This document shows positions 1,450 to 44,934 of a stretch of DNA of 64,000 nt, in pieces. The position numbers and the translations under genes are program-made. A model generated the notes under the pieces. That model was not told where the DNA came from. It ran no database searches and worked only from the letters and a program-made list of their open reading frames with translations. Location: positions 1 through 64,000 of the IMG/VR virus record IMGVR_UViG_3300022700_000069. One strand, written 5' to 3'. Position 1 is the first letter of the stretch, and every line of letters begins with the position of its first letter. Source of the stretch: a virus.

Positions 1450-4400
1450 ATGGCAAATAATAAAGACAAACGAACAGTATATCAAAATTTAAATAGATTT
1501 TTTAATTTAGATGGTTTTGGTTTTGCACCAATTCAACATAATCAAGATAACAATAAAGTTGTTATAAAGGGTAATTCTCCAGAAGATATTAAAAGAAAGG
1601 GACTGGAAATTGAACAACGAAAGAAAATTCAAGATAAATATTTTCGTACAACTGATAGAGGTTTTCAAAAAGCATTGCAATATGAAGCAGCAAGACTTCC
1701 AGCTTATATTGATTATGAAGGAATGGAATATTATCCAATAATTTCATCAGCATTAGATTTATTTATGGAAGAAGCAACTACTATTGGTTCAAATGGTAAA
1801 ATGTTAAATATTTATTCTAATAAAGATAGAATTAAATATTTATTAGAAGAATTTTTTTATGATATTCTAAATGTTAATGTTAATCTACCATTTTGGACAA
1901 GAAATGTTGCCAAATACGGTGATAATTTTGTATTATTATATGGTGAAAGAAAAAAAGGAATTACCCATGTAAAACAAATGGTTAATTATGAAGTAGAAAG
2001 GTTTGAAAGAATACAAAAGGGTAAACCAGTAGTTAAATTTAAAGAAAGAATGACTGGTGATGAATTTAATGTATTTGAAGTAGCACATTTTAGATTATTG
2101 GGTGATGATAAATATCTACCATATGGTTCATCTGTCTTAAATAAAGTTCGTAGAGTATTTCGTCAACTTGTTATGGGTGAAGATGCAATGTTAACATATC
2201 GTATTATACGTGCTGGTGAGAAAAAGGTGTTTAAAATTGATGTTGGTAATATTGATGAAGAAGATATTGAAGATTACATCTATAAGGTTGCAACTAAATT
2301 TAAAAAATCAATGGAAGTATCACCAAATGATGGTCAAATTGATTATAGATTTAATATATTAGGCAATGATGAAGATTATTTTATACCTGTTAGAAATGCT
2401 AATGTTGAAACAGGTATTGATACACTTCCGGGGGCATGTTTATCGCTTGATACAAAAATTAATCTATTAGATGGTAGAAGTTTATCGCTTAATAATATTA
2501 TAAATGAATATGAATCTGGAAAACAATTATGGTCATATTCAATAAATCCTCAATCTGGAAATATTGTACCGGGTAAAATAACATGGGCAGGGGTTACCAG
2601 AAAAAATGCACAAGTATTAAAATTAACTTTAGATAATGGTGAAACTATTACTTGTACCCCTGATCATAAATTTCCAACAAAATATAATGGAATTAAAGAA
2701 GCAAAAGATTTATTAATTGGTGAATCAATGTGGTCATTTAATAAAAAATTTAAAAAAATTAAGGGTCAGGGAAATGATTATGAAATGATATATGACCATT
2801 CTATTAATGATTGGGTTTATACTCATAGAATAGTGAATGATTATATTAATGATAAACCAATAAATAATTTAATTAGACATCATAAAGATTTTAATAGATA
2901 TAATAATAATCCAGAAAATATTGAAAGATTAACAATAAAAGAGTATTTAAAGAAACATAATGAACAAGCACTAGTTGGTGGGTTGGCATTTAAAGAAAAA
3001 TATAACACAAATGAAAAATTTAGAAAAAAAATTAATAATGTGTTAAATGCTGCAAGAACTAAATATCATAATAAATTAAAAATTGATGATAATTTTAGAA
3101 ATAATGTAATAAAAAAACAATCAAAATCAATTAATAATTCAGTAAAATCAAGAGATATAGCAATTGAAACTTTTAATGACAATCCAAATAGAGAATCAAT
3201 TCTTAATGAAAGAGGAAAATCTATATCAAAAACAAAATCATTAAAAGAAAATAGAATAAAACAATCTAAAATTACTAAACAACAATGGAAAAATAGTAAT
3301 TTAAGAGAAATTGTGATAGAAAAGCAATCAATTAAATACTCTAATAAATTACTTGATTTATTAATAAGTTACATTGATGAATATAATAGGATTGATTTAA
3401 TTTTAGAAAATAAAATCAATATCGAAAATTCTGAATGGTTAAATGAATTTAACCGAATTAATGAAAATAATAAACAATTAAAAAAGATGTCTCTTATTAC
3501 TAGAAATAACATTGATAAAATGTTAAAATATTTTGGTTATTCTAATTGGAGAGATTTTAAATCAAAAATTCCCTATTATAATCATAAGATTGTTTCAATC
3601 GAATGGTTAGAAGAAAAACAAGATACAGGTACAATCACTATTGATGGTCAAGAAAATTTACATAATTTTCATAATTTCGCATTAAATTCTGGAATTTTTA
3701 CAAATAATTCTAATCTTGATCAAATACAAGATATTGAATATTTACGTGATAATTTATTTACTGGTCTTGGTATACCAAAACCGTTTTTATCATTTCAAGA
3801 TGCTGCTGGTGGTGGTAAAAATATGGCTCAATATGATATAAGATTTGCTAAAAAGATTAATAGAATTCAACAATCAATGATTCAAGAATTGAATAAAATG
3901 GCAATGATCCATTTATATTTATTGGGTTATGATAAAGAAGATATTGGTAATTTTACTTTAACATTAACCAATCCATCTACACAACAAGAAATGCTTAAAG
4001 CAGAATTGTTTAGAGAAAAATCACAAGTGTATACTGAACTTACACGTGGTGAAAATGGTATCGCTGCTATGTCACATACAAAAGCAAAACGTATTGTTTT
4101 CAATATGAGTGATCGTGAAATTGTTAATGATCTTAAACAACAAAAAATGGAAAAAGTTGTTCAACAAGAACTTGCTGATGCACCAGTTGTTATTAAACAA
4201 TCTGGCATATATTCTGATATTGATAAAAAATATGGTGAACCTGAATTAGCTGGTGCAGCAACTGGTAGTACTGGTAATGAAGAAGGTGAAGGTGGTGGAA
4301 TTCCACCAGAAGGTGGTGCTGCAGAAGGAGGTGAAACTCCTGAAGGTGGTGAAGGGGAAGTACCATTTCAATCACCAACTGATTTACCACCAATCGAAGC

Positions 4401-4701
4401 TGAAGGTGTAAACAGTAAAAAAATTATGAGTAATGATGAATATAATAAACATATTGAAAATATAGTATATGGTGATAATAAAGAATATCAAAAAAATAAA
4501 AATGAAAAGAAATTAATTAAAGAAAATATAGGAAAAAATGATGGTTTAAATAAAAAAGCAAATGAAATGGTAAATGAAATTGATTCAATGTTAGAAGAAT
4601 CGGAAAAACTTAATGAAAATGATTCTGTAAATATTGATAATATTGATCTTGAAAAACTTGATGATATTAATTTAAAAATCGATATTGAAGATACTGAATA
4701 A
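1450..4701 (+). CDS. gp20: Portal vertex protein, T4 gp20-like, interrupted by an intein
   Basis: Dodecameric portal at the packaging vertex, through which gp17 pumps DNA. The 1083-aa precursor contains a 424-aa intein (residues 330-753), so the spliced portal would be about 659 aa against 524 for T4 gp20. The exteins read TLPGA before the intein and SNLDQIQDIEYLRDNLF after it, which is the conserved TLPGASNL...D(I)-Y portal core; the intein sits inside that motif. The N-extein has the gp20 clip/stem features (ALDLFMEEATT near residue 99). The C-extein continues with KPFLSFQDAAGGGKNMAQYD. The C-terminus (after about residue 940) is a Gly/Glu/Pro-rich stretch followed by an acidic, Asn/Lys-rich helical tail not found in T4. 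It starts with ATG 24 nt after a late motif and has no Shine-Dalgarno sequence. Confidence 0.95.
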   Translation: MANNKDKRTVYQNLNRFFNLDGFGFAPIQHNQDNNKVVIKGNSPEDIKRKGLEIEQRKKIQDKYFRTTDRGFQKALQYEAARLPAYIDYEGMEYYPIISSALDLFMEEATTIGSNGKMLNIYSNKDRIKYLLEEFFYDILNVNVNLPFWTRNVAKYGDNFVLLYGERKKGITHVKQMVNYEVERFERIQKGKPVVKFKERMTGDEFNVFEVAHFRLLGDDKYLPYGSSVLNKVRRVFRQLVMGEDAMLTYRIIRAGEKKVFKIDVGNIDEEDIEDYIYKVATKFKKSMEVSPNDGQIDYRFNILGNDEDYFIPVRNANVETGIDTLPGACLSLDTKINLLDGRSLSLNNIINEYESGKQLWSYSINPQSGNIVPGKITWAGVTRKNAQVLKLTLDNGETITCTPDHKFPTKYNGIKEAKDLLIGESMWSFNKKFKKIKGQGNDYEMIYDHSINDWVYTHRIVNDYINDKPINNLIRHHKDFNRYNNNPENIERLTIKEYLKKHNEQALVGGLAFKEKYNTNEKFRKKINNVLNAARTKYHNKLKIDDNFRNNVIKKQSKSINNSVKSRDIAIETFNDNPNRESILNERGKSISKTKSLKENRIKQSKITKQQWKNSNLREIVIEKQSIKYSNKLLDLLISYIDEYNRIDLILENKINIENSEWLNEFNRINENNKQLKKMSLITRNNIDKMLKYFGYSNWRDFKSKIPYYNHKIVSIEWLEEKQDTGTITIDGQENLHNFHNFALNSGIFTNNSNLDQIQDIEYLRDNLFTGLGIPKPFLSFQDAAGGGKNMAQYDIRFAKKINRIQQSMIQELNKMAMIHLYLLGYDKEDIGNFTLTLTNPSTQQEMLKAELFREKSQVYTELTRGENGIAAMSHTKAKRIVFNMSDREIVNDLKQQKMEKVVQQELADAPVVIKQSGIYSDIDKKYGEPELAGAATGSTGNEEGEGGGIPPEGGAAEGGETPEGGEGEVPFQSPTDLPPIEAEGVNSKKIMSNDEYNKHIENIVYGDNKEYQKNKNEKKLIKENIGKNDGLNKKANEMVNEIDSMLEESEKLNENDSVNIDNIDLEKLDDINLKIDIEDTE
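2437..3708 (+). mobile_element. Intein with HNH-type endonuclease region in portal
   Basis: In-frame protein-splicing element of 424 residues. Block A starts at Cys330 (CLSLDTKINLLDG). Block B is TCTPDHKF with Thr403 and His406. Block F/G is NLHNFHNFALNSGIFTNN, and the first C-extein residue is Ser. The central part has an HNH-like segment (His477-His478, Asn482 and Asn485-487, Asn490 in the context PENIERL), followed by long basic helical sequence that probably binds DNA. The residue before the terminal Asn is Asn rather than the usual His, which is atypical but tolerated in some inteins. The boundaries are exact if splicing is standard, because removal restores TLPGA-SNL. Confidence 0.9.
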
Positions 4702-5549: not shown

Positions 5550-7277
5550 TTATTTAGATAAATTTCTTAACATTTGAATTAATTCCGGTTGTGGATGACA
5601 ATCGGATTTATCATTTCTATAACTAACATGTGTCCAAATACCAGATATACCATTTAATGCATTTTTTGAAACACCCCATGCACCATTAATTTTTGATGGT
5701 ATTGATAATCCATTATCATCATAATCAATATCCCACATATCTGTTTTATATGTTAAATCAATATCATTAAATTTATTTTTTAATGATAAAATTAATTCTC
5801 TAACAGCATTAATTTGCGCATTAGTATATTTTTCAAATGCTTTAAAACCTCTAAATCCTTTAGGATATAATTGAACATTCTGTATTGGATTTTCATTATC
5901 TTTTGGTTCTGCTGTTTGTTTATCACCATCTCTATCCATAGTAGTTGGATACCAACCACCATTAGGACCTTGAATTAATCCACCCCATGAATCTATTTCA
6001 ATACCAATACTTCTCTGATCTAAAAACACATTACTTTTAGTTGTTCCTTGTTTATTAATAAAATCAGCCGTTATACCTAAATGACTTGCCCAATAATTTG
6101 TATTAAATAATTGGAAAATATTACCTGTTCTTGAAATAATGAATGCTGTTGCTATTCTTTCACCTTTATCTCTCCACCATTTAACATCACCACCAACACC
6201 TTCATTACCCCCACTAACAGTATGATGTAATACAATTTGTGTTTTTTGCTTTTGTGTTTTAACATATTGATCTTCTGGGAAATAAATAAATTTATATCTA
6301 TCATCAGTAACTATAGATAATTTTTCTAAATCTTCAACACTAAAACCATATTGTTCTGATTCTACAACATTTGCTTTATATGGATTAAAATTATCATTTG
6401 GATAATTATTTAAATCACTTTCATTATTAGTAATAAATAAATTATTATATCCAAAACTATAATATTTTGGTTTATATTTTTTATTAAATGATGCTTTTAT
6501 TAGATTAATAGTATCACCTAAAACACCGAATACTTTTAAAACATAATTTAATCCTTCGGTTAATTCTTGTTGGGTATCATTTTTTTTACTTTTTTCAATT
6601 GCTCTTGAATAAGTATTAGCTAAAAAATTGGTTCCACGATTATAACAAAATAAACTAGTACTAACTAATTTTGCAGAATTATTTGAAAGATATCGCATGT
6701 ATCTAGCTTGCGCTTTAATCATCACATCTGGATTATTAATAATATTTTGATGTAATATTGATCTGTTTAATCGAGCAACATTTTTAGTATTCTTATTTCC
6801 TGATGTTGGCTGATATGATGTTGATGATAATGGAAATTTTAAATTATTTATTATTGATGCTTTTTCCATATCAAACATTTTTGGTTCTACATTACTAAAA
6901 TTATCAACAATAACACTATAAATCATAGACATTGTAAAACCATTAATACCAGATTTTGTTGTTTTTTTATCATACCACCAAAGTTTAAAACCTGATTCAA
7001 CATAACATTGTGCTGCTAATACATTTGGGTCTAAACCATAATCTTCACCCGCATCTTCAAACCATTTAATTAATGCATCTTTAAGATTACTTGTTGTTAA
7101 TTCATTACCATTAAATTTACTATTTACTGTCCATTCAGTATCAATTGATTCTCCATTTCCATCATCACTAAAAGGTAATATTCCATTATTACCTTTTAAT
7201 AATGAATTACCGCCATCATCAATAACTTTATCAATAAATTTTTTTCCTTGATCTGTTATTTTTGTTATTTTTGCCAT
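5550..7277 (-). CDS. Two-domain cell-wall hydrolase: lytic-transglycosylase-like plus amidase_2
   Basis: A 575-aa peptidoglycan hydrolase. The N-terminal part (about residues 45-200) looks like a lysozyme/SLT fold: DYGLDPNVLAAQCYVESGF with the expected catalytic Glu, then a GFTMSM segment in the place of the usual substrate loop. The C-terminal part (about 345-575) is an N-acetylmuramoyl-L-alanine amidase of the amidase_2/PGRP type: VLHHTVSGG with His351-His352, IGIEIDSWGG, and a distal SDCHPQPEL supplying the last zinc-ligand region. There is no signal peptide. It is the second gene of a - strand pair behind the giant hub-like protein, so it could be either a tail-associated lysin (replacing the T4 gp5 lysozyme domain) or the endolysin. 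The neighbour favours a tail role (inference). Confidence 0.8.
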   Translation of the reverse strand: MAKITKITDQGKKFIDKVIDDGGNSLLKGNNGILPFSDDGNGESIDTEWTVNSKFNGNELTTSNLKDALIKWFEDAGEDYGLDPNVLAAQCYVESGFKLWWYDKKTTKSGINGFTMSMIYSVIVDNFSNVEPKMFDMEKASIINNLKFPLSSTSYQPTSGNKNTKNVARLNRSILHQNIINNPDVMIKAQARYMRYLSNNSAKLVSTSLFCYNRGTNFLANTYSRAIEKSKKNDTQQELTEGLNYVLKVFGVLGDTINLIKASFNKKYKPKYYSFGYNNLFITNNESDLNNYPNDNFNPYKANVVESEQYGFSVEDLEKLSIVTDDRYKFIYFPEDQYVKTQKQKTQIVLHHTVSGGNEGVGGDVKWWRDKGERIATAFIISRTGNIFQLFNTNYWASHLGITADFINKQGTTKSNVFLDQRSIGIEIDSWGGLIQGPNGGWYPTTMDRDGDKQTAEPKDNENPIQNVQLYPKGFRGFKAFEKYTNAQINAVRELILSLKNKFNDIDLTYKTDMWDIDYDDNGLSIPSKINGAWGVSKNALNGISGIWTHVSYRNDKSDCHPQPELIQMLRNLSK

Positions 7278-7283
7278 TTTTTA

Positions 7284-10200
7284 TTAAAATTTGAATGTAT
7301 ACATTGAATTATATTTTGCTTGATTTGGATTATCAGCAGTTCCAACACCCAATAAAACTTCATCTATAGATGCTGCATTTGCATTTGTTTTTGTTGTACT
7401 ACCACCATCAAATCCTACTATTGATGCAGGATTTTTTACTCTTGGCATTGGATATTTTAATAATTTTGTGCCCGAAAATTTTGTAGTCATTTTATTTGGC
7501 GTAATATTATGTTCTACCGTTAATATGACATAAGCACCATTAAAAAGTGGCACATTTTCCAATTGAAAATATTGTGTTGGTTGAATCATTGCATTACCAA
7601 ATCCTGTCACTGTTGCTTTATATGCTCTATTTTCATAAATATTATACAAATTTTGTCCTTTAGGTACTGGTGCTTGCTCTTTATTATCACCAGCTAATCT
7701 TGATAATATTTGTATTGATTCATTTGTTTCGGGATATTCTTTACTATCAATACCAAAATCAAAAAACATATTTTGATTTTGTTCACCATATCTTACTCTA
7801 AATGCTCGTACTTCATTTAAAAATTCACCATTATTTGTTAATTCATCTACTTGTTGATCTCTATCAGGATCAGGTTCACATTCACTATTTAAAAAATCTC
7901 TAGTATTTGGGTTTTCTAAATCAACAATGCCATCATCTTCAAATGGACTAAATAAATTAATATTGCTTGGATAACTTGCTGCACCACCGATGTACATACA
8001 AACAAAAACAGGATATTCTTTTTGTACACCACTTGTGTTAATTTCAAATGATTTTTCCCATTCATTTTCAGTAAATTTTAAAAAATTTTGAAGTGGGAAG
8101 AATTCAAATCCATTTAATGATAATAATTGTGATAGAACACTAAATACTGATGTATCTGGACTATTTTTAGCATCAATTAATGCTTTAGGATCAATAATTG
8201 TATCACCAATCGGATTCATTGCTCTATCAACAAAAGCAAATTGACTTATTAATCCTTTTGATCGTTCATTTTTAAATGGATATCCATTTGTTGATTTATT
8301 TAAACCAGAAAGCCATTTATCATTTAAATTTTTAAAAGAATAATATGTTTGTGTTAAAATATCTTCATCACCTGTTGATTTTTTAAATGTTTCTACTTGT
8401 TCCTGTAAATATTCTAATCTTTTATTAATTTTTTTTGATATTTCATTAAAAAATGTACTAAAAAAAATATTATTATATTTTTGTTTAATTGATTCTTGAT
8501 TTTGCTTATTTAATGATGTATATGTTTTATTGTTAATATTTTTAATATATCTAAATGTTATTTCATTAAATATTGCAAATCCAACTCTTTTTACTAATTT
8601 ATCTAATATATCTGAAAATTCTGCATCATTTGTTAATAAATCTTCATAATATTCAAGTTTACATTTACGTATATTATTAGCAGTATCATTGGTAATATTA
8701 TTATAAAATACACCGACCAAATCGTATATAGTAGTTGTTGCCCCAATAGTAATTTCTTCATCATCAAGACATTCTTCTTTAATTAAACCATCACTATTTT
8801 CATCACCATTTACTCTTCTATATAAACTATCAACGCTACTTGCTAAACTATTAAAATCATCATTAAACCATGTTTCATATCTTTGTTTTAATATATCTTT
8901 ATCTTCATTGCTTAAATATTTATTAATATCGTGAATATCAGCAAAAATTAACATTCCACCACTTTCAATAAATATTCCTGAACCACTAGTAAAAAAATCA
9001 TATATTTCATTATAAAATTCATCACCCTTTTCTATACCAACTAAAGCACCCATATATAGTTGTACAAAATATGGTAATTCAACAATTGATGGTATTGAAA
9101 AAAAGTCAACATTTAAATTATATGGATAAGAATTAAATGTACTTAAAGTATATCCAAAATTTGATAAATATATTAATGCTGTTAATTTTGGGTTTTTTAC
9201 ATTTCCATTTTCATATTTTATAATACTATCATATATCATATTATCATTAGTTGATAAAACACCAGTCCATGCATCTAAAATACTTGTACTATTTTTATCT
9301 ACATTTGTTATTTTATTTGTAAATTCTAAATTTATTGATTTAAAATATTTATTTCCATATTTTATTAATTTATTAATAAGCGGATAATATTTAAAGGATG
9401 TGCTACCATCTCTAATTTTTAAAGGATTATAATATTGTCCAAAAATATATTCTTTTTTTATTTCTTCAAGATCATAAAGAAGTAATTCATTTGCACCATC
9501 AGTTAAATAATTTCTTTGATAAATTAATGGTGATGCTATAAATTTAGTTTTTAAAACATCATTACCCTCTGATTCTCTATCTTTTCTAAAGATTACATTT
9601 TCTTTTGAAAAAACAAAATTTTCTTCTGGAGTTTCTTTTTGTCCTCTAAATAATTTATCCCAAAAAGTTGTTTCATTTTCTTCAATAAATTGATCAAAAT
9701 CATCATTACTATCATTACTAATTCTTTCTGATAAATCATAAGAATTAATTATTTTAAATCCACGATATAATTCATCTTCTTTATCTCGATACATATCATA
9801 CCCATTACTAATTGTATAAAATTCACTATCTTCAGAATATAAATCAGTTAAGTATTCATTTATATATGTATAAAATCCATTTAATTGATTATTTAATTTA
9901 CTACTTTTATTATTTTGTAAACTAAACTCTTTTAGTAATTTAGCATACTGTTCATTAGTAACTGAATTAACTAAATTAATTGCTTCAGATTTTGCATATA
10001 ATTTAACATATTCAATAGTACTACTATTATCAGTTTCATAAATATTATTACCATTATTATAAAATGAATATGCTAATGCATTTTGAGATAAAATATAAAA
10101 TCTTTTTAAGAATATTTCAAATATTTGTGTTAGTTTATTAGTTTCTAATAAATTAATTGGTTGTTGAATATCACCACCAGTAGAACTATCAGTACCATAA

Positions 10201-12011
10201 TAAGGACTATTAATATTGGTAGAAACCAATGTACTATCAGCAGGTGTAAATGGTATCCATTTATAATTACCTTCTGCCGATCTTTCATCTTTTAATGTTG
10301 CTTGTTTATATATTCGATTATATTTAATAAATGAATCTATAAATTCTTGAACTAATGTTAATTCAGGAAATGGTTGATCTAGTCTTGCACTTATATCAAT
10401 TGGTGCTGTTCTTACTTCTTTAGTTTGGTTACATACTTTTTCTTGTTTAATTATCAGTGGAAATGAATATATCTTAGGATTATCATTATTATTTTTTTTA
10501 ATATCTTTATATGTACCATCATTAACTATTAATTTTTTAAAAGAATTTTTATTATGATGTTCTTCAGCATCTTTTGATGTATTTCTTAATTTATTAAAAA
10601 AAGTATCAACATCATTTAAAATTATTTCAAATATATTATATATTGTTGGCAACATACCAAGTCTGTTTTGAATCATATTATTAATTTTTTGATTCAAATC
10701 ATTCATGGTATTTCTTTTCCTTTCTTGTAATAATAACCTATTTTTAAAAATTTTAGTATAAAACCTAGTTATATCAATACCAATATATTTTACAAAATAA
10801 TCTGCATCACTAATAGCACCCGTTTCTGATAAAATTTCTTCAGCATCTTTGATATCACCAATAGAAATGTCACTATTTATCATTATTTTTTTTGTTGATG
10901 TTATTAAATTTTTTTTATAATTATTTAAATTTTTCTTAAGTGTATTATTTCTTTGGTTAATTGTATCAATATTATTATTATTTGTTTCAACAAAATAACC
11001 AATAAATAATTTTTTTTGTATATTATTTGGTATATCAACTGTTTGAAATGTTTCTAAAAATTCATTATATGTTACAAATGATTCAATTCTATTTATATTA
11101 CCTGTTGTTGGACTATCAGGTGCTTCATTTCTAGTAAATAAAATTGGTTCACCACTATTTTTTTTTAAGTTTTCTCTATTTTTATAATCATATAATATTT
11201 CAAAAACATCATTAAATGATTCTAATTTTTTTTGAGCATTTTCATATTTAATGCTATCAATATCGGATTTTAATTTATCGGGAATTTCAGAATATAAATT
11301 TTCTAATTTAAGAATTAAATCAAAAGTGTTTTTAGGTGGTTCATTTTTTTTAGATGATAATGTTGGTTCACTTGGGAACATAAGTGGTGCTTGTATTATA
11401 TATCTATATAATATGTCTGTTAATGGTGCATAAGTGATTGCAATAAATTGTGCTTTTATGTGATAATTACCTGTTTCTGCTTTAAATTCAGTATTATATT
11501 TTACTAAATGCATTTGATATGTAAGTCCTTTACCATAATAACCCTTAAATGATAAATAAAAAATTGGGGGTGGGAAATCAAATAATATTCTATATGGTGA
11601 ATCCTTTCTATTAAAAAATGCAAGTCCACGAATATCAATAAATTCAATATCAATTTGGGGTATATATGATGAATTTACAACAACATCAATACTTTTTATA
11701 CCAAAACCTTCATATGTTTTTTCAGTATCACTTTCTTGATCGTAATAATTTGTTGTAAATTTATTAAAATGTGCTGAATTATTTTGATCTTGATTTTGAC
11801 CAAGAAAACTAATTGTTTCACCTTCTTGTGATGCATCTTTGTTTATTTTAGTAATATCTGTATTAATATTTGTTGAAAGAACTGTTCTTTGCCTTTTATA
11901 TGCAGTTAAATCAACAGATATATACATATCTTGGTATTGGGGGATACCATTTGTTATATTATTATTTATGTTACTATTATTAGGATCAATAAGATTTACA
12001 TTACCTGCCAT
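7284..12011 (-). CDS. Giant baseplate hub-like structural protein
   Basis: A 1575-aa protein, the longest in the window. Residues about 90-200 are beta-rich (IKSIDVVVNSSYIPQIDIEF, then FKGYYGKGLTYQMHLVKYNTEF) and resemble the tube-like domains of gp27/late-control-D hub proteins. The C-terminal 120 residues (VTGFGNAMIQPTQYFQLEN, then ILTVEHNITPNKMTTKFSG) resemble the closing barrel of the same hub families, whose members are typically 350-450 aa. About 1100 residues of Asn/Ile/Lys-rich sequence lie between, so the protein would be a hub with a very large insertion. It is the first gene of the - strand unit, behind a CTATTTAT motif, and the wall hydrolase follows after 6 bases. The structural role is inferred from these two end regions and the context; no database search was possible. 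Confidence 0.55.
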   Translation of the reverse strand: MAGNVNLIDPNNSNINNNITNGIPQYQDMYISVDLTAYKRQRTVLSTNINTDITKINKDASQEGETISFLGQNQDQNNSAHFNKFTTNYYDQESDTEKTYEGFGIKSIDVVVNSSYIPQIDIEFIDIRGLAFFNRKDSPYRILFDFPPPIFYLSFKGYYGKGLTYQMHLVKYNTEFKAETGNYHIKAQFIAITYAPLTDILYRYIIQAPLMFPSEPTLSSKKNEPPKNTFDLILKLENLYSEIPDKLKSDIDSIKYENAQKKLESFNDVFEILYDYKNRENLKKNSGEPILFTRNEAPDSPTTGNINRIESFVTYNEFLETFQTVDIPNNIQKKLFIGYFVETNNNNIDTINQRNNTLKKNLNNYKKNLITSTKKIMINSDISIGDIKDAEEILSETGAISDADYFVKYIGIDITRFYTKIFKNRLLLQERKRNTMNDLNQKINNMIQNRLGMLPTIYNIFEIILNDVDTFFNKLRNTSKDAEEHHNKNSFKKLIVNDGTYKDIKKNNNDNPKIYSFPLIIKQEKVCNQTKEVRTAPIDISARLDQPFPELTLVQEFIDSFIKYNRIYKQATLKDERSAEGNYKWIPFTPADSTLVSTNINSPYYGTDSSTGGDIQQPINLLETNKLTQIFEIFLKRFYILSQNALAYSFYNNGNNIYETDNSSTIEYVKLYAKSEAINLVNSVTNEQYAKLLKEFSLQNNKSSKLNNQLNGFYTYINEYLTDLYSEDSEFYTISNGYDMYRDKEDELYRGFKIINSYDLSERISNDSNDDFDQFIEENETTFWDKLFRGQKETPEENFVFSKENVIFRKDRESEGNDVLKTKFIASPLIYQRNYLTDGANELLLYDLEEIKKEYIFGQYYNPLKIRDGSTSFKYYPLINKLIKYGNKYFKSINLEFTNKITNVDKNSTSILDAWTGVLSTNDNMIYDSIIKYENGNVKNPKLTALIYLSNFGYTLSTFNSYPYNLNVDFFSIPSIVELPYFVQLYMGALVGIEKGDEFYNEIYDFFTSGSGIFIESGGMLIFADIHDINKYLSNEDKDILKQRYETWFNDDFNSLASSVDSLYRRVNGDENSDGLIKEECLDDEEITIGATTTIYDLVGVFYNNITNDTANNIRKCKLEYYEDLLTNDAEFSDILDKLVKRVGFAIFNEITFRYIKNINNKTYTSLNKQNQESIKQKYNNIFFSTFFNEISKKINKRLEYLQEQVETFKKSTGDEDILTQTYYSFKNLNDKWLSGLNKSTNGYPFKNERSKGLISQFAFVDRAMNPIGDTIIDPKALIDAKNSPDTSVFSVLSQLLSLNGFEFFPLQNFLKFTENEWEKSFEINTSGVQKEYPVFVCMYIGGAASYPSNINLFSPFEDDGIVDLENPNTRDFLNSECEPDPDRDQQVDELTNNGEFLNEVRAFRVRYGEQNQNMFFDFGIDSKEYPETNESIQILSRLAGDNKEQAPVPKGQNLYNIYENRAYKATVTGFGNAMIQPTQYFQLENVPLFNGAYVILTVEHNITPNKMTTKFSGTKLLKYPMPRVKNPASIVGFDGGSTTKTNANAASIDEVLLGVGTADNPNQAKYNSMYTFKF

Positions 12012-12138: not shown

Positions 12139-12843
12139 ATGGCAAAAATCTTACAAGCAGGTGAATCTGGATTTGGTATTTTAATTGAACAAGATGCTGG
12201 ATATATTAGTCCAGATATGAATAAAAATATTATAGCTGAAAATTTTGAAGTTAAACCAAATGAACCTCTACTAATAAATTGTGTATTACAAAAATGGGGG
12301 GTTGAGAATAAAAATGGGAGAATTTATCCTCAAGAAGTATTAGTGCCCCAAGTAAATGAATATGAAAAACATGTGAATAATAATTCTGCTGGATCAGAGG
12401 CTGATCATCCTGATAGTAGTATTATTTCACTTCACAATTTATCACATATGATTACTAAAATGTGGTGGGGAAAAGGCAACCAAGAACACATATTATTTGG
12501 TCAATTAAAATTATTAGTAACAAGAGGTTATATAAAATATGGTATTTGTTCAGTAATTGGTGATAAAATACTGCTTTATTTAGAAAATGGATATAAATTA
12601 GGTATTTCATCACGTGGTGTTGGTAGCTTAGAAGAAGTTAACGGACAAAATATTGTACAATCTGATTTTGAATTAATAGGTTTTGATCTTGTTGCAACAC
12701 CAAGTACTCCCGGTGCATATTTATTTCCGGGTGTTAAAAATGTTGAACAAGCAATTGGTGAAAATTATATAAAAAAGGACGGTATTTATCTAAAAGAAGA
12801 GAGTAGTAAGATTATCAATACATTAGATAAATTTTTAATATAA
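12139..12843 (+). CDS. gp21: Prohead maturation protease, T4 gp21-like
   Basis: A 234-aa serine protease (T4 gp21 is 212 aa) that would cleave scaffold and capsid precursors inside the prohead. The gp21 landmarks are visible: the N-terminal NGRIYPQEVL, the catalytic His90 in SEADHPDSS, the catalytic Ser157/Ser158 in LGISSRGVGSL, and the following DFELIGFDLVATPSTPGA, which is highly characteristic of the family. Its position directly before scaffold and major capsid genes is the T4 21-22-23 order. It has its own variant late motif. Confidence 0.92.
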   Translation: MAKILQAGESGFGILIEQDAGYISPDMNKNIIAENFEVKPNEPLLINCVLQKWGVENKNGRIYPQEVLVPQVNEYEKHVNNNSAGSEADHPDSSIISLHNLSHMITKMWWGKGNQEHILFGQLKLLVTRGYIKYGICSVIGDKILLYLENGYKLGISSRGVGSLEEVNGQNIVQSDFELIGFDLVATPSTPGAYLFPGVKNVEQAIGENYIKKDGIYLKEESSKIINTLDKFLI

Positions 12844-16408: not shown

Positions 16409-16771
16409 ATGAAAAAATTAATTAATGATATTTTAAATTCTTTAGATAATTCGTTATTAAAAAAGGAATTTATTAGTAATAGTTCACAAAATTCATATAG
16501 CAATCACTGTTATATTGCTACTGAAGCATTATATCATTTATTAGATGAAAACACTAGAAAATTATATACACCATCAATATTAAAAGTTAATAATATTACA
16601 CATTGGTTTTTAAAAAATAAAAAAGATGGTAGTATCATTGATATAACAAAAGAACAATTTAACTTTGATTTAGATTATAGTAAATCTCAAAATAAATTCT
16701 TTTTAACACCATATCCATCGAAAAGAGCATTAATTTTAATTAATAGAGTATATGAAAAAAATTGTTGTTAA
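16409..16771 (+). CDS. Conserved phage protein with Cys-His-Asp arrangement
   Basis: A 120-aa protein resembling a family of small phage proteins with an N-terminal NHCYIATEALYHLL motif, a middle ITHWFLKN and then DGSIIDITKEQF. The order Cys, His, Asp with small or hydrophobic neighbours resembles the catalytic layout of papain/transglutaminase-fold enzymes, but the catalytic idea is an inference. It is probably expressed early from the host-type promoter at 16350-16380. Its 3' end overlaps the following endonuclease reading frame by 20 bases. Confidence 0.65.
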   Translation: MKKLINDILNSLDNSLLKKEFISNSSQNSYSNHCYIATEALYHLLDENTRKLYTPSILKVNNITHWFLKNKKDGSIIDITKEQFNFDLDYSKSQNKFFLTPYPSKRALILINRVYEKNCC

Positions 16772-18254
16772 TAAAACACTAATACTTTTTTTAAATATCA
16801 ATGATATGATATCATTGGATAAAGGTAATTTAAAAAAAATAAAAGATGAATATTTAAAAATATACGATAATTGTATTATATATAATTATTATAACATATT
16901 AAATCATAAGCAATTAATTAAAGATAAAATAAACAAATTAAAATTTAAAAATCAAAAAAGAATAAATGCAAGAGATTGTATTATAAAAATAATTGAATCA
17001 AAAGAAAAAAATTCGTTCTTAAATGTAAATCACATACAAGGAACTGATAAATCTCAAATTTACTATGGTGCATATCATAACAATGAATTAGTTTCAGTCA
17101 TGACATTTGATAACACTAAAGGTATTAACGGAGGAATGAAGAAGAACGAATATGAATTATCAAGATTTTCAATAAAAATTGGACTTATTATTGTTGGAAT
17201 ATTCAATAAAATACTAAAAAAATTCATAACTAATTATAAACCTAATAGAATAACATCATTTGCAGATTTAAATGTTGTTAATAAATATAATAACATTTAT
17301 TTAAATAATAATTTTAAAGTATCTAAAAATTTATCACTAGATTTTAAATATTTTTTTATTAATGGTGATAATTTATATCATAAATTAACCTATGGTAATA
17401 AGTTTAGAAAAAATCCTAAAATTAATGAAGATAAAAAAAATGAAATTATTGAAAATCTACATAAGTTTTGGGATTGTGGTAAAATTAAATATGAACTTCT
17501 TTTAAATAAAAACGGTACACCTATTTATGGTTTTATTTACATGATAAAAAATAAGATAAATAGTAAAATTTATATTGGACAAACATATAGAAACATTAAT
17601 AAAAGAATATATGAATATAAAGCTGCATGTAAATACAACAAATTCAATAATAAATATTTAGGCAATGCATTCAACAAATATGGGTGGGATAATTTTGAAT
17701 TTTCAATAATTGATACCGCAACATCAATCAATGGATTAAATGATAAAGAAATTTATTACATAAAAAAATATAATTCACACAATAAAAAATATGGTTATAA
17801 TTTACATTTAGGTGGTAGAAATGCAATTCCAAATAGTGAAACACTAAACAAAATGTCAAAAGCACATTTAGGTAAAAAGCAAACTCAAGAATGGGTTAAT
17901 AAAAGAATTGCAAAAGCTGGAACCGAAGATGCAAAAAAATATGGGAAGAAAAAAACTAAAGATGAGAGAGAAGAATTGAGTAAAAAGTCACCTAAATATT
18001 GGTCAGGTAAAAAAAGAAGTGATGAGACTAAAGAAAAAATAAGCAAAACAAAAAAAGAAAAAGGATTATCAGAACAACAAAAAAAGGCAATTTGTAAGAA
18101 AGTTTATAAAAAAAACATTACAACAAATAAAATTGAGGTTTTCAATTCAACTAAACATGCATCAACTAACGAAAATGTTAATCAATCCACAGTTTCAAGA
18201 TGGTGTAAAAATAATAAGATCGTTAATAATTTTCAATGGTTCTATAATAAATAA
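16752..18254 (+). CDS. GIY-YIG homing endonuclease with N-terminal GNAT/Mom-like module
   Basis: A 500-aa chimeric protein. Residues about 65-250 (ARDCIIKIIESKEKNSFLNV, NHIQG, NNELVSVMTFDN, YELSRFSI, ITSFADLNV) match the C-terminal module found in the Vsr-type endonucleases of this window. Residues about 258-350 are a GIY-YIG nuclease domain (YGFIYMIKNKINSKIYIGQT, then KYLGNAFNKYGWDNFEF and NDKEIYYIKKYNS). The C-terminus has NUMOD3-like segments (SETLNKMSKAHLGKKQT; SDETKEKISKTKKEKG) and a NUMOD1/helix-turn-helix-like end that probably bind DNA. ATG 16752 overlaps the preceding gene; M19 at 16806 is an alternative start. Inserted directly after the capsid unit, it looks like a free-standing mobile gene. 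Confidence 0.85.
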   Translation: MKKIVVNKTLILFLNINDMISLDKGNLKKIKDEYLKIYDNCIIYNYYNILNHKQLIKDKINKLKFKNQKRINARDCIIKIIESKEKNSFLNVNHIQGTDKSQIYYGAYHNNELVSVMTFDNTKGINGGMKKNEYELSRFSIKIGLIIVGIFNKILKKFITNYKPNRITSFADLNVVNKYNNIYLNNNFKVSKNLSLDFKYFFINGDNLYHKLTYGNKFRKNPKINEDKKNEIIENLHKFWDCGKIKYELLLNKNGTPIYGFIYMIKNKINSKIYIGQTYRNINKRIYEYKAACKYNKFNNKYLGNAFNKYGWDNFEFSIIDTATSINGLNDKEIYYIKKYNSHNKKYGYNLHLGGRNAIPNSETLNKMSKAHLGKKQTQEWVNKRIAKAGTEDAKKYGKKKTKDEREELSKKSPKYWSGKKRSDETKEKISKTKKEKGLSEQQKKAICKKVYKKNITTNKIEVFNSTKHASTNENVNQSTVSRWCKNNKIVNNFQWFYNK

Positions 18255-19590: not shown

Positions 19591-22098
19591 TTATTGTTCT
19601 TCATCATTCCAATTATGATCATATATTAAATCAGTTTTTGCTCTTGTAATTGCAACATATTCAAGATTTTTTTCTTGTTTATATTGCCATTTTTTAGAAT
19701 TTGGAAATGGAATTAAATCTGGTCTTATAATAAAAACACGATTTGCTTCTAATCCCTTTGCCTTATGAATTGTACTTAGTACAATTCCAGTTAATTTATC
19801 AGTAAATATTGTTTTAATATTATGTTTGAGACTTTCAATAGTATCAGAAACTCTTGATAAAAATAATAATGTATTAACTTTATCTTGTAGTGCTACATAT
19901 CCTGTGTGTTCTTGAGGGTTAAGAATACCATTATTGTATAATTCTTTTTTAAATTTTTCAAGTTCATCTTCCCAATAATTAATTAATTGAGAAATTGTTT
20001 CAAAATTTTTTGTTAATTCTATTAATTTAATGCCAATATCACTTCCTTTAATAATGGCTTTTTTTTGTTGTGATAATAATTCAAAAAATAGTTTAATTAA
20101 TGGTGCTGTTGTTCTACAAAGAATAAAATCACCATTTTTAGCTTCATTAAGTACATCACCATCTCTAACAATACCTTCTGGTGCTTCTGGTAATGCTTTA
20201 ATATTTGGTACAATATTTTGAGCATGTTCAATTACTTTTTTTGAACATCTAAAAGAATATGAAAGTGGTAATATTTTGGTATTTTGAAAATTTTTGAACC
20301 AATTAAATGATCTTTCATCCGCACCCGAAAATCCATAAATTGTTTGAAAAAAATCTCCAACTCCAATTAATCTACCTTTATATTTTTTAGTATTTTTATC
20401 TCTTCTAAGCATTTTTTCAATCAATCTAATTTGACACCTATTTAAATCTTGTATTTCATCTACAAAAACATAATTTTGTGGAAATAACCATAATGAATTA
20501 TCCACTGCAGGAAGATATATCATATCAGTATAATCAAAAGTTTTCCTATCTTGAGTCATTGAATCAAGGATTTTTAAAATTCTTTTAATATCTTGGTCTT
20601 TTGTTAATGTAACTTCATATCTTTCAGCAATGAATGGTATATATTTTTTATCAGTTGTTAGCGATAATCTACACAAATTAACCATTTTTTTTATATCTTG
20701 AAAATATCTATATTTTTCTTCTTTGGATTTTAATTCTAAGTCTAAATTCCATTTTTTTGCTTTTTTTTGAATATGTTTATCTGCTTTAAATTCATCAAAT
20801 TGAATTTTATCACCATATTTTCTTTTGATTGCTGACATACCAAGACCATGTGATGTATAACATCTAACATATTCTGGTAATTTAGTTTTTAATTCTTCCT
20901 GAATATGTTTATTAAATGCCATAAACATAATATTTTTATCTTTAGGAATTAATTTAACCGCTTCTACTACAGTCGTGGTATTATGTGTTATGGTAAAATC
21001 ACCTAATAAAAATCTACCATTACCATCTAATGTAAAACCATAATAATTACCAGTACCAATATATTCAACTTTGAAACCAGTTCTTAATACTGATTTTTTT
21101 TGTTTTCTTGGTTTACATTTTTTTCTTGATAATAAAACTGGAACATTCTCAAACGATCCACTAATCGTAATATGCCAATATTTACCAGAAAATTTTAATG
21201 ATTTAATTTTTTTAGTAATTCCCTTTTTATATGCTGAAAATCCTAAACTTCTTGCAAGAAAAAGAATATCATCAGCAAATGATTTATATTTTGTAGCAAT
21301 CTCATAATATTTATGGTATTGATATCCATCTGAATCAATTATACCTGCAAATAATTTTAATCTATTATTATATGAATTAATTTTATATTCATTAGGTATG
21401 ATTAAATCACTATTATTATTAAAACATTTCTTAAATTCATCTCTTATTATATTATTAACCTTACGACCATTAAAATTAGGGGTTGTTAATGATACAGTTA
21501 TCAAATTTTTTTGATATTCGTTGAATTTAGGTGTAATATTATCATATTTAACATTTTTTAAATAATTTAAAATAGGTTTTTCATTAATATTAACCGATAT
21601 TCTAGGACTTCCATTAAATTTTGTACCATCACCTAACCAAAGACCTAATAAATAGGGGTCAATAATTACATCTTTTTTAGGAAAAGAAACCTCTTTTCTT
21701 TGAAGTCTTGCATACCTATAATTACCATTTCTATATTTAGGATAATTTATTTTATTTAATGGTATATCTAATAATTTTTTCTTTTGTTCATGATGATGAG
21801 TTAATATGTGTACATCATTACAAATCCAAGAATCACCCTTAACTGGAATTACTTTATATAACTTACCATTACCAATATTTGTATTTAATACCTTTCTTGG
21901 CATTGAATCATCACCCATAATCAAATCACCAATTTTTATATTTTGTACTTTTTTTATTGTACCATCATACATTAATATTGGTGTGTTTATACCTAAACAT
22001 TTTCCTGCTCCTGCATATGCTTCAATAAGAATATTCTCAGGTCTTTTTTTTATAAATTTAAAAATTTTTTCTTGTTCAGTTGTAGGTTTTAAATTCAT
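19591..22098 (-). CDS. UvrD/Dda-like superfamily 1 DNA helicase, interrupted by an intein
   Basis: ATP-dependent DNA helicase for replication or recombination. The 835-aa precursor contains a 340-aa intein (residues 34-373), leaving a 495-aa helicase. After splicing, Walker A reads AYAGAGK-TTTVVEAV. Other SF1 motifs are Ia (FMAFNKHIQEEL), Walker B (FVDEIQDLNRCQI), motif III (GVGDFFQTIYGFSGAD), motif IV (LSYSFRC), motif V (LSTIHKAKGLEANRVFI) and motif VI (YVAITRAK). This set is typical of UvrD/Rep/Dda-type enzymes. It is the third gene of a - strand early unit. The protein is inactive unless spliced, because the intein splits the P-loop. Confidence 0.92.
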   Translation of the reverse strand: MNLKPTTEQEKIFKFIKKRPENILIEAYAGAGKCLGINTPILMYDGTIKKVQNIKIGDLIMGDDSMPRKVLNTNIGNGKLYKVIPVKGDSWICNDVHILTHHHEQKKKLLDIPLNKINYPKYRNGNYRYARLQRKEVSFPKKDVIIDPYLLGLWLGDGTKFNGSPRISVNINEKPILNYLKNVKYDNITPKFNEYQKNLITVSLTTPNFNGRKVNNIIRDEFKKCFNNNSDLIIPNEYKINSYNNRLKLFAGIIDSDGYQYHKYYEIATKYKSFADDILFLARSLGFSAYKKGITKKIKSLKFSGKYWHITISGSFENVPVLLSRKKCKPRKQKKSVLRTGFKVEYIGTGNYYGFTLDGNGRFLLGDFTITHNTTTVVEAVKLIPKDKNIMFMAFNKHIQEELKTKLPEYVRCYTSHGLGMSAIKRKYGDKIQFDEFKADKHIQKKAKKWNLDLELKSKEEKYRYFQDIKKMVNLCRLSLTTDKKYIPFIAERYEVTLTKDQDIKRILKILDSMTQDRKTFDYTDMIYLPAVDNSLWLFPQNYVFVDEIQDLNRCQIRLIEKMLRRDKNTKKYKGRLIGVGDFFQTIYGFSGADERSFNWFKNFQNTKILPLSYSFRCSKKVIEHAQNIVPNIKALPEAPEGIVRDGDVLNEAKNGDFILCRTTAPLIKLFFELLSQQKKAIIKGSDIGIKLIELTKNFETISQLINYWEDELEKFKKELYNNGILNPQEHTGYVALQDKVNTLLFLSRVSDTIESLKHNIKTIFTDKLTGIVLSTIHKAKGLEANRVFIIRPDLIPFPNSKKWQYKQEKNLEYVAITRAKTDLIYDHNWNDEEQ
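20980..21999 (-). mobile_element. Intein with LAGLIDADG endonuclease in helicase Walker A
   Basis: A 340-residue element from Cys34 (CLGINTPILMYDGTIKKVQN) to Asn373 (GDFTITHN), with Thr as first C-extein residue. Splicing blocks are canonical, including the terminal His-Asn. Two LAGLIDADG-type motifs are present, LLGLWLGDGT at about residues 148-157 and LFAGIIDSDG about 100 residues later, so homing activity is plausible. Insertion is between the Lys and Thr of GAGKT, a classic intein site. Both catalytic acidic residues of the LAGLIDADG helices are kept. Confidence 0.93.
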
Positions 22099-22875: not shown

Positions 22876-23978
22876 CAGTTGAGAAAAATAAATTATTTAC
22901 AAAAGTAAAACATGAATTAGGTTACCCTTTAAGACCTTTTGAAATTAAGGATGACATGATGATGTCATATCTGGAAATGGTAATTGAAGATTATTCATCA
23001 TTATTGAATAATTGGTTAATACATCAACAATGGGTTAGTGTTGAAGGTTTAAGTAAAGAAAATTCTGATTTTTTATCGGCATTTACAACTAAATCAACCA
23101 ATTATATGGAATCATTTACATATGCATATTCAAAACAAATTGGGTATGGTACAAATGCTCCTGCAAAAAATAATTGGGAATTGAAACGTGATTATATTAT
23201 CACATCTGCTAATACTCAACACTATATTATTCCTGCAAACAGAGAAGTAAATGAAGTTTTATGGGAAACACCACCTGAAATTGATCAGGGTTTAGTTGAT
23301 CCATTTTCATTAAATGCATGGAGTCCCGGTATGCATGGTTGGTCATATTTAGGTCGTCCTGCTATGTACGTTCAACCAACATTTTCAACACTATTAACAG
23401 CACAAGATCGTAGAATGAAACAAAGAGTCTTACAATCATTATTAACATATAGAATTACTGGTCTTGGTGATGGTCGTAAATTATTACATTTATACCCTGT
23501 ACCGGGAAGCAGACAAGAAATAAATAATCGTTGGGGTAAGCATTATGCTGGTAGAAAAGTTTGGTATTGGTATTATGATACAAACAATGTAGGTAGAGAT
23601 AAATGTTTAGAAGAAAATGATGATACTGTTAAATTACCTTCTGATCCACCTGTAAATGTATTAAAATGGGAGAAAATGAATGAATCAGCACGTAGACAAA
23701 TTCGTGATCTTCTTATTGCTAAAGTGAAAATGGTAATTGGTGGAATTCGTGGTTTTTATTCTGGTGAATTAGGTGTTACTGAAAAACAATTATCAATGGA
23801 TTATCGTCATTTACTTGATGAGGGGAAAGATTTAAAAGAAGCAACAGAAAAGGATATTACCGATTTATTAGATAAAATATCACAAGCTAATTTAACTGAA
23901 GAAAGAGCGAAAATTGCTGAAAATGTAAATAATGAACGTAGGTATCAACCACCTATGTTCCCTATAATTGCAATTTAA
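22860..23978 (+). CDS. gp13: Neck / head-completion protein, T4 gp13-like
   Basis: A 372-aa structural protein (T4 gp13 is 309 aa). The N-terminus LFTKVKHELGYPLRPFEIKDDMMMSYLEMVIEDYSSLLNNWL (residues 12-53), the aromatic-rich central region (HGWSYLGRPAMYVQP), LLHLYPVPGS, and the C-terminal helical region with RQIRDLLIAKVKMVIGGIRG fit the gp13 neck family, which caps the packaged head and recruits the tail. It has a late motif. In T4, gene 14 follows directly; here a homing endonuclease on the other strand separates it from the gp14-like gene, overlapping its last 17 bases. The assignment rests on motif impressions plus order. Confidence 0.65.
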   Translation: MTLITTVEKNKLFTKVKHELGYPLRPFEIKDDMMMSYLEMVIEDYSSLLNNWLIHQQWVSVEGLSKENSDFLSAFTTKSTNYMESFTYAYSKQIGYGTNAPAKNNWELKRDYIITSANTQHYIIPANREVNEVLWETPPEIDQGLVDPFSLNAWSPGMHGWSYLGRPAMYVQPTFSTLLTAQDRRMKQRVLQSLLTYRITGLGDGRKLLHLYPVPGSRQEINNRWGKHYAGRKVWYWYYDTNNVGRDKCLEENDDTVKLPSDPPVNVLKWEKMNESARRQIRDLLIAKVKMVIGGIRGFYSGELGVTEKQLSMDYRHLLDEGKDLKEATEKDITDLLDKISQANLTEERAKIAENVNNERRYQPPMFPIIAI

Positions 23979-29631: not shown

Positions 29632-30322
29632 AATATTTATTTTTATATTCCCATTTATACCCAAATGCTGTTTTATTTCTTTTTCGTAAACATTGCATAA
29701 TTCCAGAACGACCAACATTAAGCATTTTTGATGCATTAGAAATTGATTCAAATTCAGAAATTATGTTCCCATTTAAATCAAGTTGTAATATCGCTTTTTT
29801 ATTTACAACATTTCTACGCATATTTACATAATCAATTTTCCTTTTTTTTATGGATTCTTTCCACTTATCCCAATCAGTATTTTCTCTAATTTTTCTTAAT
29901 CTTTCTGGATCATAATAATCAATTTTTGAAGTACGTTTAGCTATATTTCTTTTTTTATCTTCTTCAGAATTAAATGTATTTAAATGTTTTGCTCTACTTT
30001 GTTGATGAAAATTAGGTTTTGTATAATCAATAAAATTTGAGGTATCACCACCATCACTATTTTCTATTCGTAAATTTGCCCATTCATTTGATTTAACAAC
30101 ATTATATTTTATGCTTAATTCATTTCCAATTTTAATTAATTCTGATACATCATTAGTTTCAAAAACAATTTCTGTTTTTATATCAATATAGGATAAATTA
30201 TATTTTTTTAAATGTCTTTTCCATATTTTTCCGCTACCATTATAAATGTAAGGATTTTTTGTTGTTTTACCTAAATATTTCAAACCAAATGGACTTGTTT
30301 TTATATATAGATAGTATTTCAT
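29615..30322 (-). CDS. Free-standing GIY-YIG homing endonuclease with NUMOD1 domain
   Basis: A 235-aa protein. The N-terminal nuclease domain reads MKYYLYIKTSPFGLKYLGKT, a GIY-YIG variant with YLY and KYLG, followed by the usual YNGSGKIWKRHLKKY. The C-terminal 55 residues (AILQLDLNGNIISEFESISN, then ASKMLNVGRSGIMQCLR and GYKWEY) form a NUMOD1 helix-turn-helix DNA-binding module. Its 3' end overlaps the thymidylate synthase start by 17 bases, recalling the association of GIY-YIG enzymes (I-TevI) with the T4 td gene, although no intron is visible here. Confidence 0.88.
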   Translation of the reverse strand: MKYYLYIKTSPFGLKYLGKTTKNPYIYNGSGKIWKRHLKKYNLSYIDIKTEIVFETNDVSELIKIGNELSIKYNVVKSNEWANLRIENSDGGDTSNFIDYTKPNFHQQSRAKHLNTFNSEEDKKRNIAKRTSKIDYYDPERLRKIRENTDWDKWKESIKKRKIDYVNMRRNVVNKKAILQLDLNGNIISEFESISNASKMLNVGRSGIMQCLRKRNKTAFGYKWEYKNKYYDKSR

Positions 30323-44040: not shown

Positions 44041-44934
44041 TTAATTAATTACAATATTATTTTGAACAATATTTTCAAGATTAATATTTTCTAAATCATT
44101 AATAATTGAATTTTTATCAGCAGAAATACCTGAATATCCATGAATATGAGCGATAATTGCTTCTCTAAATATATTTAATGCTTCAATTAAAACATCTGCT
44201 CTTGCTAAAGGATGTCCATCATCAAAAATTCGAGTACGATCATCTATATTTAATCTTGCTGCTTTAAATTTTGGGTTACCGGAGTGTGATATTAATGCAA
44301 TTTTATCACTTAATACAACAGTATTACTATAATATTCATCTTCGTCTTCTTTTTGATCAAATGATAAAGTAATAGCTGCTGGATTTTTAATATTTAATTT
44401 AAGAGGGTTATCATTTTCATGTTTACCAGCACGAAATTCAAGTTGATTATTTCTTAAAATTACATCAGTATTTACTCGACCAACAATACCAATTTCATCT
44501 TTTTGAGGAAATACACCTTGGGCATCAGGATATGTAGACGGTGCTGTTTCAGGTGCTGTTAAACCCATATTAGTTGTTGAAAGTGCTGTATATATTGAAT
44601 CATATTCAACCTTATGTGGTTGTGAAATAATACTACCCATCCAAAATCGACTTCTTTGTGGATATTTAATATCTTCTATAAAAATTCTAACCATTTCACC
44701 AACTTTGGGAAATACATGAAAAAATTTGGGTAATAGGGGGTAACAATATGGTAAATCATTTACATCAGTTATTTTATTATCAAAACCTAATATTTTTACT
44801 TTTATTCTACCACCATCTGTTGGGTCATCAATTGACAACACTTCACCATAATAAATATTACGTGTATTAGTAACATCATCAGTAGTTTTTTCATATAATT
44901 TACTTGTTTGTAAATATTTTTTATTTAATGACAT
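44041..44934 (-). CDS. Baseplate central spike, T4 gp5 OB-fold-like without lysozyme
   Basis: A 297-aa protein. Residues about 25-115 form a gp5-type OB fold: RNIYYGEVLSIDDPTDGGRI, then KVKILGFDNKI, PYCYPLLPKFFHVFPKVGEM and SRFWMGSIIS. T4 gp5 (575 aa) has a lysozyme domain and a long beta-helix. Here there is no lysozyme motif and the C-terminal part (about 150-297: GRVNTDVILRNNQLEFRAGK, TVVLSDKIALISHSG, HPLARADVLIEALNIFREAI) is short. The missing lytic activity may be supplied by the hydrolase at 5550-7277 (inference). Confidence 0.75.
   Translation of the reverse strand: MSLNKKYLQTSKLYEKTTDDVTNTRNIYYGEVLSIDDPTDGGRIKVKILGFDNKITDVNDLPYCYPLLPKFFHVFPKVGEMVRIFIEDIKYPQRSRFWMGSIISQPHKVEYDSIYTALSTTNMGLTAPETAPSTYPDAQGVFPQKDEIGIVGRVNTDVILRNNQLEFRAGKHENDNPLKLNIKNPAAITLSFDQKEDEDEYYSNTVVLSDKIALISHSGNPKFKAARLNIDDRTRIFDDGHPLARADVLIEALNIFREAIIAHIHGYSGISADKNSIINDLENINLENIVQNNIVIN

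What the first reader, a model, noticed from the sequence alone, without database searches (positions are those of the whole stretch)
5550..12011. Giant hub-like protein paired with a two-domain wall hydrolase, while the gp5-like spike lacks lysozyme
The 1575-aa protein has hub-like ends and about 1100 extra residues. Its operon partner carries SLT-like and amidase_2 domains. The gp5-type OB-fold protein at 44041-44934 has no lysozyme domain. Together this suggests that cell-wall piercing has been moved from the spike to a separate two-activity enzyme, perhaps loaded onto the enlarged hub.
Basis: partly seen in the sequence, partly recalled or inferred. Interest (0 to 1): 0.6.

Follow-up and report, generated by a model that had tools for sequence, protein, structure and literature searches.

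The report
Giant phage hub with exchangeable wall-cutting enzymes
In a group of large uncultured phages (probably of Bacteroidota), the enzyme that should cut the bacterial wall during infection sits at the end of an oversized tail-hub protein rather than on the tail spike, and related phages have repeatedly swapped it for other wall-cutting enzymes, either fused to the hub or encoded by the next gene.

Summary
The window has a 1575-aa protein (7284-12011, -) followed 6 nt downstream by a 575-aa protein with an SLT-like domain and a significant Amidase_2 domain. The gp5-type OB protein (44041-44934) has no lysozyme, and neither do its 44 complete relatives (293-306 aa).

Among 74 distinct relatives found by hub queries, 43 of 43 unfused hubs are followed directly by the SLT gene. 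The other 31 hubs carry a C-terminal hydrolase: GH25 in 25, M23 in 2, and M15_3, VanY, a weak lysozyme-like domain and the same SLT domain in one each. Only one fused hub also has the separate SLT gene. On the hub tree the state changes at least 15 times, and sister genomes show clean cassette replacement at the hub's end. The partner's second domain also swaps.

The N-terminal fold match to tail-tube/gp27-type proteins is consistent but individually weak; the C-terminal barrel is unproven. Virion incorporation and enzyme activity are untested. Hub-borne wall enzymes are known (A-1(L) gp15; Tal proteins). New here are the insert's size, the unfused two-domain partner, and the recurrent exchange at one slot.

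The parts
7284..12011 (-). Giant hub-like protein, 1575 aa
   Evidence: ORF; more than 200 relatives in uncultured phage contigs and one contig of a Bacteroidota MAG
11376..11924 (-). N-terminal conserved region (residues about 30-212), tail-tube/gp27-type beta-barrel
   Evidence: AF2 model; Foldseek hits dominated by baseplate hubs and tube proteins, including T4 gp27; individually weak E-values
8385..11324 (-). Middle insert (residues about 230-1209), mostly helical, variable in sequence
   Evidence: Conservation profile, AF2 model, near full-length fold match to a 1083-aa viral protein named 'Lysozyme' and to a 1008-aa viral protein
7437..8384 (-). C-terminal conserved block (residues 1210-1525), most conserved part; gp27-like barrel suspected
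   Evidence: Conservation; hhalign to gp27 C-terminal barrel collinear but not significant, P=0.18; low pLDDT
7287..7310 (-). C-terminal tag NSMYTFKF of the unfused hub (consensus NSMYxFKI), candidate docking peptide
   Evidence: Pattern in 50 of 66 unfused hubs and 1 of 31 fused hubs, that one being the SLT fusion L100
5550..7277 (-). Two-domain cell-wall hydrolase, 575 aa, directly downstream of the hub
6408..7277 (-). SLT (lytic transglycosylase-like) domain, residues 1-290; motif Glu94-Ser95
   Evidence: homologous domain fused to the hub in L100-L103
5553..6272 (-). Amidase_2 domain, residues 336-575; likely zinc ligands His351/His352, His550, Cys560
   Evidence: Pfam above cut-off; the LHHTVS and DKSDCHPQ motifs present in all five amidase-bearing homologues aligned; residue positions; ligand roles by analogy with the family
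44041..44934 (-). gp5-type OB-fold spike without lysozyme domain, 297 aa
4764..5546 (+). Conserved flanking gene next to the hydrolase slot
   Evidence: Next to the slot in the relatives examined
1450..4701 (+). T4-like portal (gp20) with intein, flanking context
   Evidence: Portal_T4 E=1.2e-48
12139..12843 (+). Prohead protease, flanking context
   Evidence: PHROG 207 E=7.8e-38

Best explanation
The 1575-aa protein is the central baseplate hub of a contractile-tail jumbo phage, and its C-terminus is an attachment slot for the virion's cell-wall hydrolase. In this phage the slot is filled non-covalently: the 575-aa SLT+Amidase_2 enzyme, encoded immediately after the hub, binds the hub (perhaps through its conserved N-terminus and the hub's C-terminal NSMYxFKI tag) and is carried into the baseplate. 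After tail contraction the lysozyme-less OB/needle spike pierces the outer membrane, and the hub-borne enzyme cuts the peptidoglycan (glycan strand by SLT, stem-peptide amide by the amidase) so that the tube can pass. In relatives the slot is filled by other hydrolases, often as direct C-terminal fusions, and the content is exchanged often by recombination at the hub's 3' end. Shown: gene pair, domains, lysozyme-less spike, near-strict fused/separate complementarity, repeated swaps. Inferred: hub identity of the C-terminal half, docking, virion location, activity, order of events.
For: 43/43 unfused hubs found by hub queries are followed by the SLT gene, against 1/31 fused hubs (P=7e-20 by Fisher's test, lineages not independent). 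Fused C-terminal domains: GH25 E=3e-35, M23 2e-27 and 1e-23, M15_3 6e-7, M15_4/VanY 2e-11; 25 GH25 fusions in all. L100: hub ending ...KSMYEHKI runs on into the SLT protein's N-terminal motif, i.e. the two genes fused. Hub tree: at least 15 fused/separate changes and 17 changes over all states. L058 vs L062: DNA 84% alike to 56 nt before L058's hub stop, then the SLT gene stands in place of GH25, and similarity resumes just after it; six further fused/separate pairs, and one pair with two different fused enzymes, have breakpoints near the same place. Gene order terL-portal-g4764-[slot-hub]-protease-scaffold conserved. Spike lysozyme-less in all relatives. N-terminal tube/hub fold. Nine large relatives (322-366 kb) each have a stand-alone Amidase_2 ORF elsewhere, 8 of 9 above cut-off, so the slot enzyme need not be the endolysin.
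Against: No virion proteomics, structure of a complex, or enzyme assay. No Foldseek PDB hit below E=0.001 and no significant profile match to T4 gp27. The C-terminal block modelled poorly. In the window's own 102-kb record, much shorter than its relatives, the slot enzyme is the only Amidase_2 match. The amidase part is related to a stand-alone amidase in a non-structural region of Tenacibaculum phage PTm1, so that domain may come from an endolysin.
Confidence: 0.8

Rival explanations
1. The 575-aa protein is the endolysin (late-lysis enzyme), only co-transcribed with the hub.
For: Amidase domain related to a stand-alone amidase of phage PTm1 outside the structural genes; no other Amidase_2 match in the short own record; several PHROGs that match the fused hubs are named 'endolysin'.
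Against: The same slot is filled by hydrolases covalently fused to the hub, including the SLT domain itself; separate SLT gene and fused hydrolase are nearly mutually exclusive; the slot lies inside the portal-protease-scaffold block on the hub's strand; large relatives carry other stand-alone hydrolases elsewhere.
Confidence: 0.1
2. The hydrolase is a head-internal (ejected) virion protein like T7 gp16, not attached to the hub.
For: Best PHROG match of the SLT part is 'internal virion protein with endolysin domain', E=2.2e-4; neighbours include head genes.
Against: Fusions are to the hub-like protein; the PHROG match covers only the shared SLT region (residues 177-260). A head location of the giant protein would be needed, against its tube/hub-type N-terminal fold.
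Confidence: 0.05
3. The giant protein is a tail fibre, tape measure or other structural protein carrying the hydrolase, not the gp27-position hub.
For: No significant sequence or profile similarity to gp27; C-terminal model poor.
Against: N-terminal barrel matches tube/hub proteins (AFP baseplate 6rbk_C prob 0.98, T4 chains prob 0.91 and 0.77), and viral gp27-type hub subunits match with prob 1.00 (E about 0.12). A tape-measure-like ORF exists at 53481-56039 (by inspection). The middle part lacks fibre-like repeats by inspection.
Confidence: 0.15

Closest known systems
Anabaena myophage A-1(L) hub gp15 (PMC10966104)
   Same: Contractile-tail phage in which the hub carries cell-wall enzymes, with a peptidase domain in the C-terminal half (residues 736-899); activity of the endoglucanase and peptidase domains shown in vitro.
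   Different: There all enzymes are domains of one hub polypeptide, two of them near the N-terminus. Here the hub has about 1100 extra, apparently non-enzymatic residues, and the enzyme is a separate gene or a C-terminal fusion, with many enzyme families at one slot.
Siphophage Tal proteins, e.g. 80alpha gp59 (PMC7048315)
   Same: gp27-like N-terminal domain with a C-terminal hydrolase domain; a separate cell-wall hydrolase (Hyd, gp67) is also assigned to the baseplate.
   Different: Non-contractile tail, Gram-positive host, small hub; no fused/separate exchange at the same slot described in the passages read.
T4 gp27-gp5 cell-puncturing device (PMC3004832)
   Same: Hub plus OB-fold spike, wall enzyme delivered by the tail tip.
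   Different: In T4 the lysozyme lies in gp5; here the spike lacks it and the hub is about four times longer.
T7 gp16 and other SLT-bearing virion proteins
   Same: SLT-type enzyme used at entry.
   Different: Head-internal protein in T7; here the enzyme is tied to the hub gene.
'Lysozyme' of Myoviridae sp. ctPuP5, A0A8S5LAH1 (predicted fold only)
   Same: Near full-length fold match to the hub model, E=5.7e-17; its name suggests a fused lysozyme.
   Different: No sequence match to the hub found in the phage collection; the annotated domain was not checked.

Membership tests
gp27-type baseplate hub | N-terminal tail-tube-like beta-barrel | tested here: inconclusive
   AF2 + Foldseek: hub and tube proteins dominate the hits, prob up to 0.98-1.00, but PDB E-values 0.14-3
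gp27-type baseplate hub | Second homologous C-terminal barrel | tested here: inconclusive
   pLDDT 35-55; hhalign collinear, P=0.18
gp27-type baseplate hub | Trimer on tail axis binding the spike OB domain | not testable with these tools
   Needs cryo-EM or complex prediction
SLT lytic transglycosylase-like | Pfam SLT match and catalytic Glu | tested here: met
   Window protein sub-threshold (E=0.0054); family members up to 4.3e-6; Glu94 invariant in 17/17
Amidase_2 (zinc amidase) | Pfam match above cut-off and His/His/Cys motif | tested here: met
   31.1 bits against cut-off 26; motifs conserved in 5/5
gp5-type spike | N-terminal OB fold | tested here: met
   PHROG 430 N-terminal match, best E=2e-7 among relatives; fold not modelled
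gp5 tail lysozyme | Lysozyme domain in the spike | tested here: not met
   No Pfam domain, 293-306 aa in 44 complete relatives
Hub with attached cell-wall hydrolase (Tal / A-1(L) type) | Hydrolase in the same polypeptide as the hub | tested here: not met
   Separate gene in the window; met in 31 relatives
Endolysin | Required for late lysis, not in virion | not testable with these tools
   Only indirect evidence against

The most novel reading that the evidence does not exclude
The hub's C-terminus is a general docking port for cell-wall hydrolases. About eight enzyme families have been plugged in at one place, covalently or through a short C-terminal tag (NSMYxFKI) recognised by a dedicated SLT carrier domain that in turn accepts exchangeable second domains, letting these phages re-tool wall penetration without touching spike or hub core.
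Probability: 0.45. Interest if true: 0.7.

Novelty: new variant of a known kind. Interest (0 to 1): 0.55.

Why it matters
How contractile-tail phages get through peptidoglycan is usually told from T4, where the spike carries lysozyme. Here a large uncultured clade appears to carry the function on the hub and exchanges the enzyme repeatedly, with natural fused and separate versions of the same pair. That gives a direct test of how a tail loads an unfused enzyme, and a catalogue of entry enzymes from several families.

Tried and rejected
Sequence searches of the hub against Pfam, PHROGs, PDB and the phage collection gave nothing for the hub itself. Foldseek of the 376-1575 model gave no meaningful hit. 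Profile-profile comparison with a gp27 family alignment was not significant, so gp27 homology is not claimed from sequence. The hub profile was not found in PTm1 or two 635-735 kb phages (no positive control in that call). Ribosomal protein S21, suggested by the gene order described in PMC9723584, was not found in the window's record or nine large relatives. Counts that included loci found through the SLT query (66/66) were set aside as biased in favour of the hub-query set. Two SLT loci without a hub (L036, L037) begin at contig edges.

Full report
What is there. The window is 64 kb of a 102,428-bp virus record, 24.5% GC, with T4-like structural genes. The giant ORF (7284-12011, -, 1575 aa) and the hydrolase ORF (5550-7277, -, 575 aa) are real and 6 nt apart. 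They form a two-gene island on the minus strand inside a plus-strand block of terminase, portal, protease and scaffold genes. The hydrolase has a Pfam Amidase_2 domain above cut-off and an SLT-like domain that is below cut-off in this member but clear in relatives. The OB-fold protein at 44041-44934 matches only the N-terminal part of the gp5 family and has no lysozyme; its 44 complete relatives are 293-306 aa.

Relatives. A hub query found 32 loci, and an alignment query found 224 confirmed places in viral contigs, of which 80 were kept. In the species-genome collection only one locus, from a Bacteroidota MAG, was confirmed. Together with the low GC and an amidase related to that of Tenacibaculum phage PTm1, this points to Bacteroidota hosts; that is inference. 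Several relatives lie on contigs of 322-366 kb, so these are jumbo phages.

The slot at the hub's C-terminus. The length of hub sequence beyond the conserved core is bimodal: 42-73 aa or 199-334 aa. Short-tailed hubs are followed at once by a homologue of the window hydrolase's SLT part. Long-tailed hubs carry a fused hydrolase, and no SLT gene follows them except in L114. In most fused loci examined for gene order the hub is followed directly by g4764. Using only loci first found by hub queries, with distinct C-termini, 43 of 43 unfused hubs have the SLT gene next, against 1 of 31 fused hubs. The Fisher value of 7e-20 ignores relatedness, so the tree is the better evidence. Fused domains are GH25 (25 loci), M23 (2), M15_3, M15_4/VanY, the SLT domain itself, and one weak lysozyme-like case. 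The separate SLT protein also varies: alone, or followed by Amidase_2, Amidase_3, M15 types or glucosaminidase.

Swaps. On a tree of 70 hub cores built without the tail, the fused/separate state changes at least 15 times, and 17 times over all states. This is the best tree of a quick search with many weak branches; however, six disjoint clades with support of 95 or more each contain more than one state. L058 (separate SLT) sits inside a GH25-fused clade. Compared with L062 its DNA is 84% alike until 56 nt before its hub stop, then the SLT gene stands where L062 has GH25, and similarity resumes immediately after. Six further fused/separate pairs, and the pair L098/L095 with two different fused enzymes, show breakpoints near the same place. 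In L100-L103 the hub's terminal KSMYEHKI runs straight into the SLT protein's N-terminal motif, a fusion of the same two genes. The pattern [x][SA]MY near the C-terminus occurs in 50 of 66 unfused hubs and in 1 of 31 fused ones, that one being L100. A docking role for this tag is inference.

Is it a hub? AF2 of residues 1-1200 gave mean pLDDT 77.6. Its PDB neighbours are mostly tail-tube, hub and baseplate proteins, including AFP, PhiTE, VgrG and T4 gp27, but with E-values of 0.14 or worse. Against viral models two long proteins match along nearly the whole length (E about 5e-17), one of them named 'Lysozyme', and gp27-type hub subunits match with probability 1.00 at E about 0.12. The C-terminal block is the most conserved part but modelled poorly when the N-terminal quarter was left out. 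Profile comparison puts it in register with the gp27 C-terminal barrel, without significance. I therefore treat 'hub' as likely but not proven.

Mechanism. The most likely reading is that the hub carries the entry enzyme. In the window's phage it would do so non-covalently, with two activities on one partner; in relatives covalently. The endolysin reading is weakened by the fusions, by the slot's near-exclusive use, and by stand-alone Amidase_2 ORFs elsewhere in nine large relatives. It is not excluded for this phage, whose record is much shorter than those of its relatives and probably incomplete.

Known background. Hub-borne wall enzymes are known from A-1(L) (PMC10966104) and from Tal proteins such as that of 80alpha (PMC7048315); in T4 the enzyme is in gp5 (PMC3004832). 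The passages read here do not describe exchange between fused and separate enzymes at one hub slot, but the library is partial and no exhaustive literature check was possible.

Noticed in passing
1450-4701 (+): T4-like portal protein interrupted by an intein (residues about 345-736).
   Followed up: partly
19591-22098 (-): UvrD-like helicase with an intein carrying a homing endonuclease near the Walker A motif.
   Followed up: partly
16752-18254, 23962-25758, 29615-30322, 40374-42011, 60195-62075: Several likely homing-endonuclease or nuclease genes (GIY-YIG, NUMOD, DUF7487, Vsr-like) scattered through the structural region; 23962-25758 judged by eye only.
   Followed up: no
45151-45558 (-): 135-aa protein near the spike that looks PAAR-like by eye; no significant HMM match, so unproven.
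   Followed up: no
56489-59818 (+): 1109-aa protein beside a LysM-like gp53-type ORF (59821-60135, by eye) with an OmpA-like stretch by eye; Pfam finds nothing in the 1109-aa protein.
   Followed up: no
L005:9995-14962 and the ORF 51 nt downstream: Hub with a fused M15 peptidase followed by a second, stand-alone M15 ORF of 176 aa.
   Followed up: no
L114:2395-8384: The only locus with both a fused (VanY-type) hydrolase and a separate SLT gene.
   Followed up: partly
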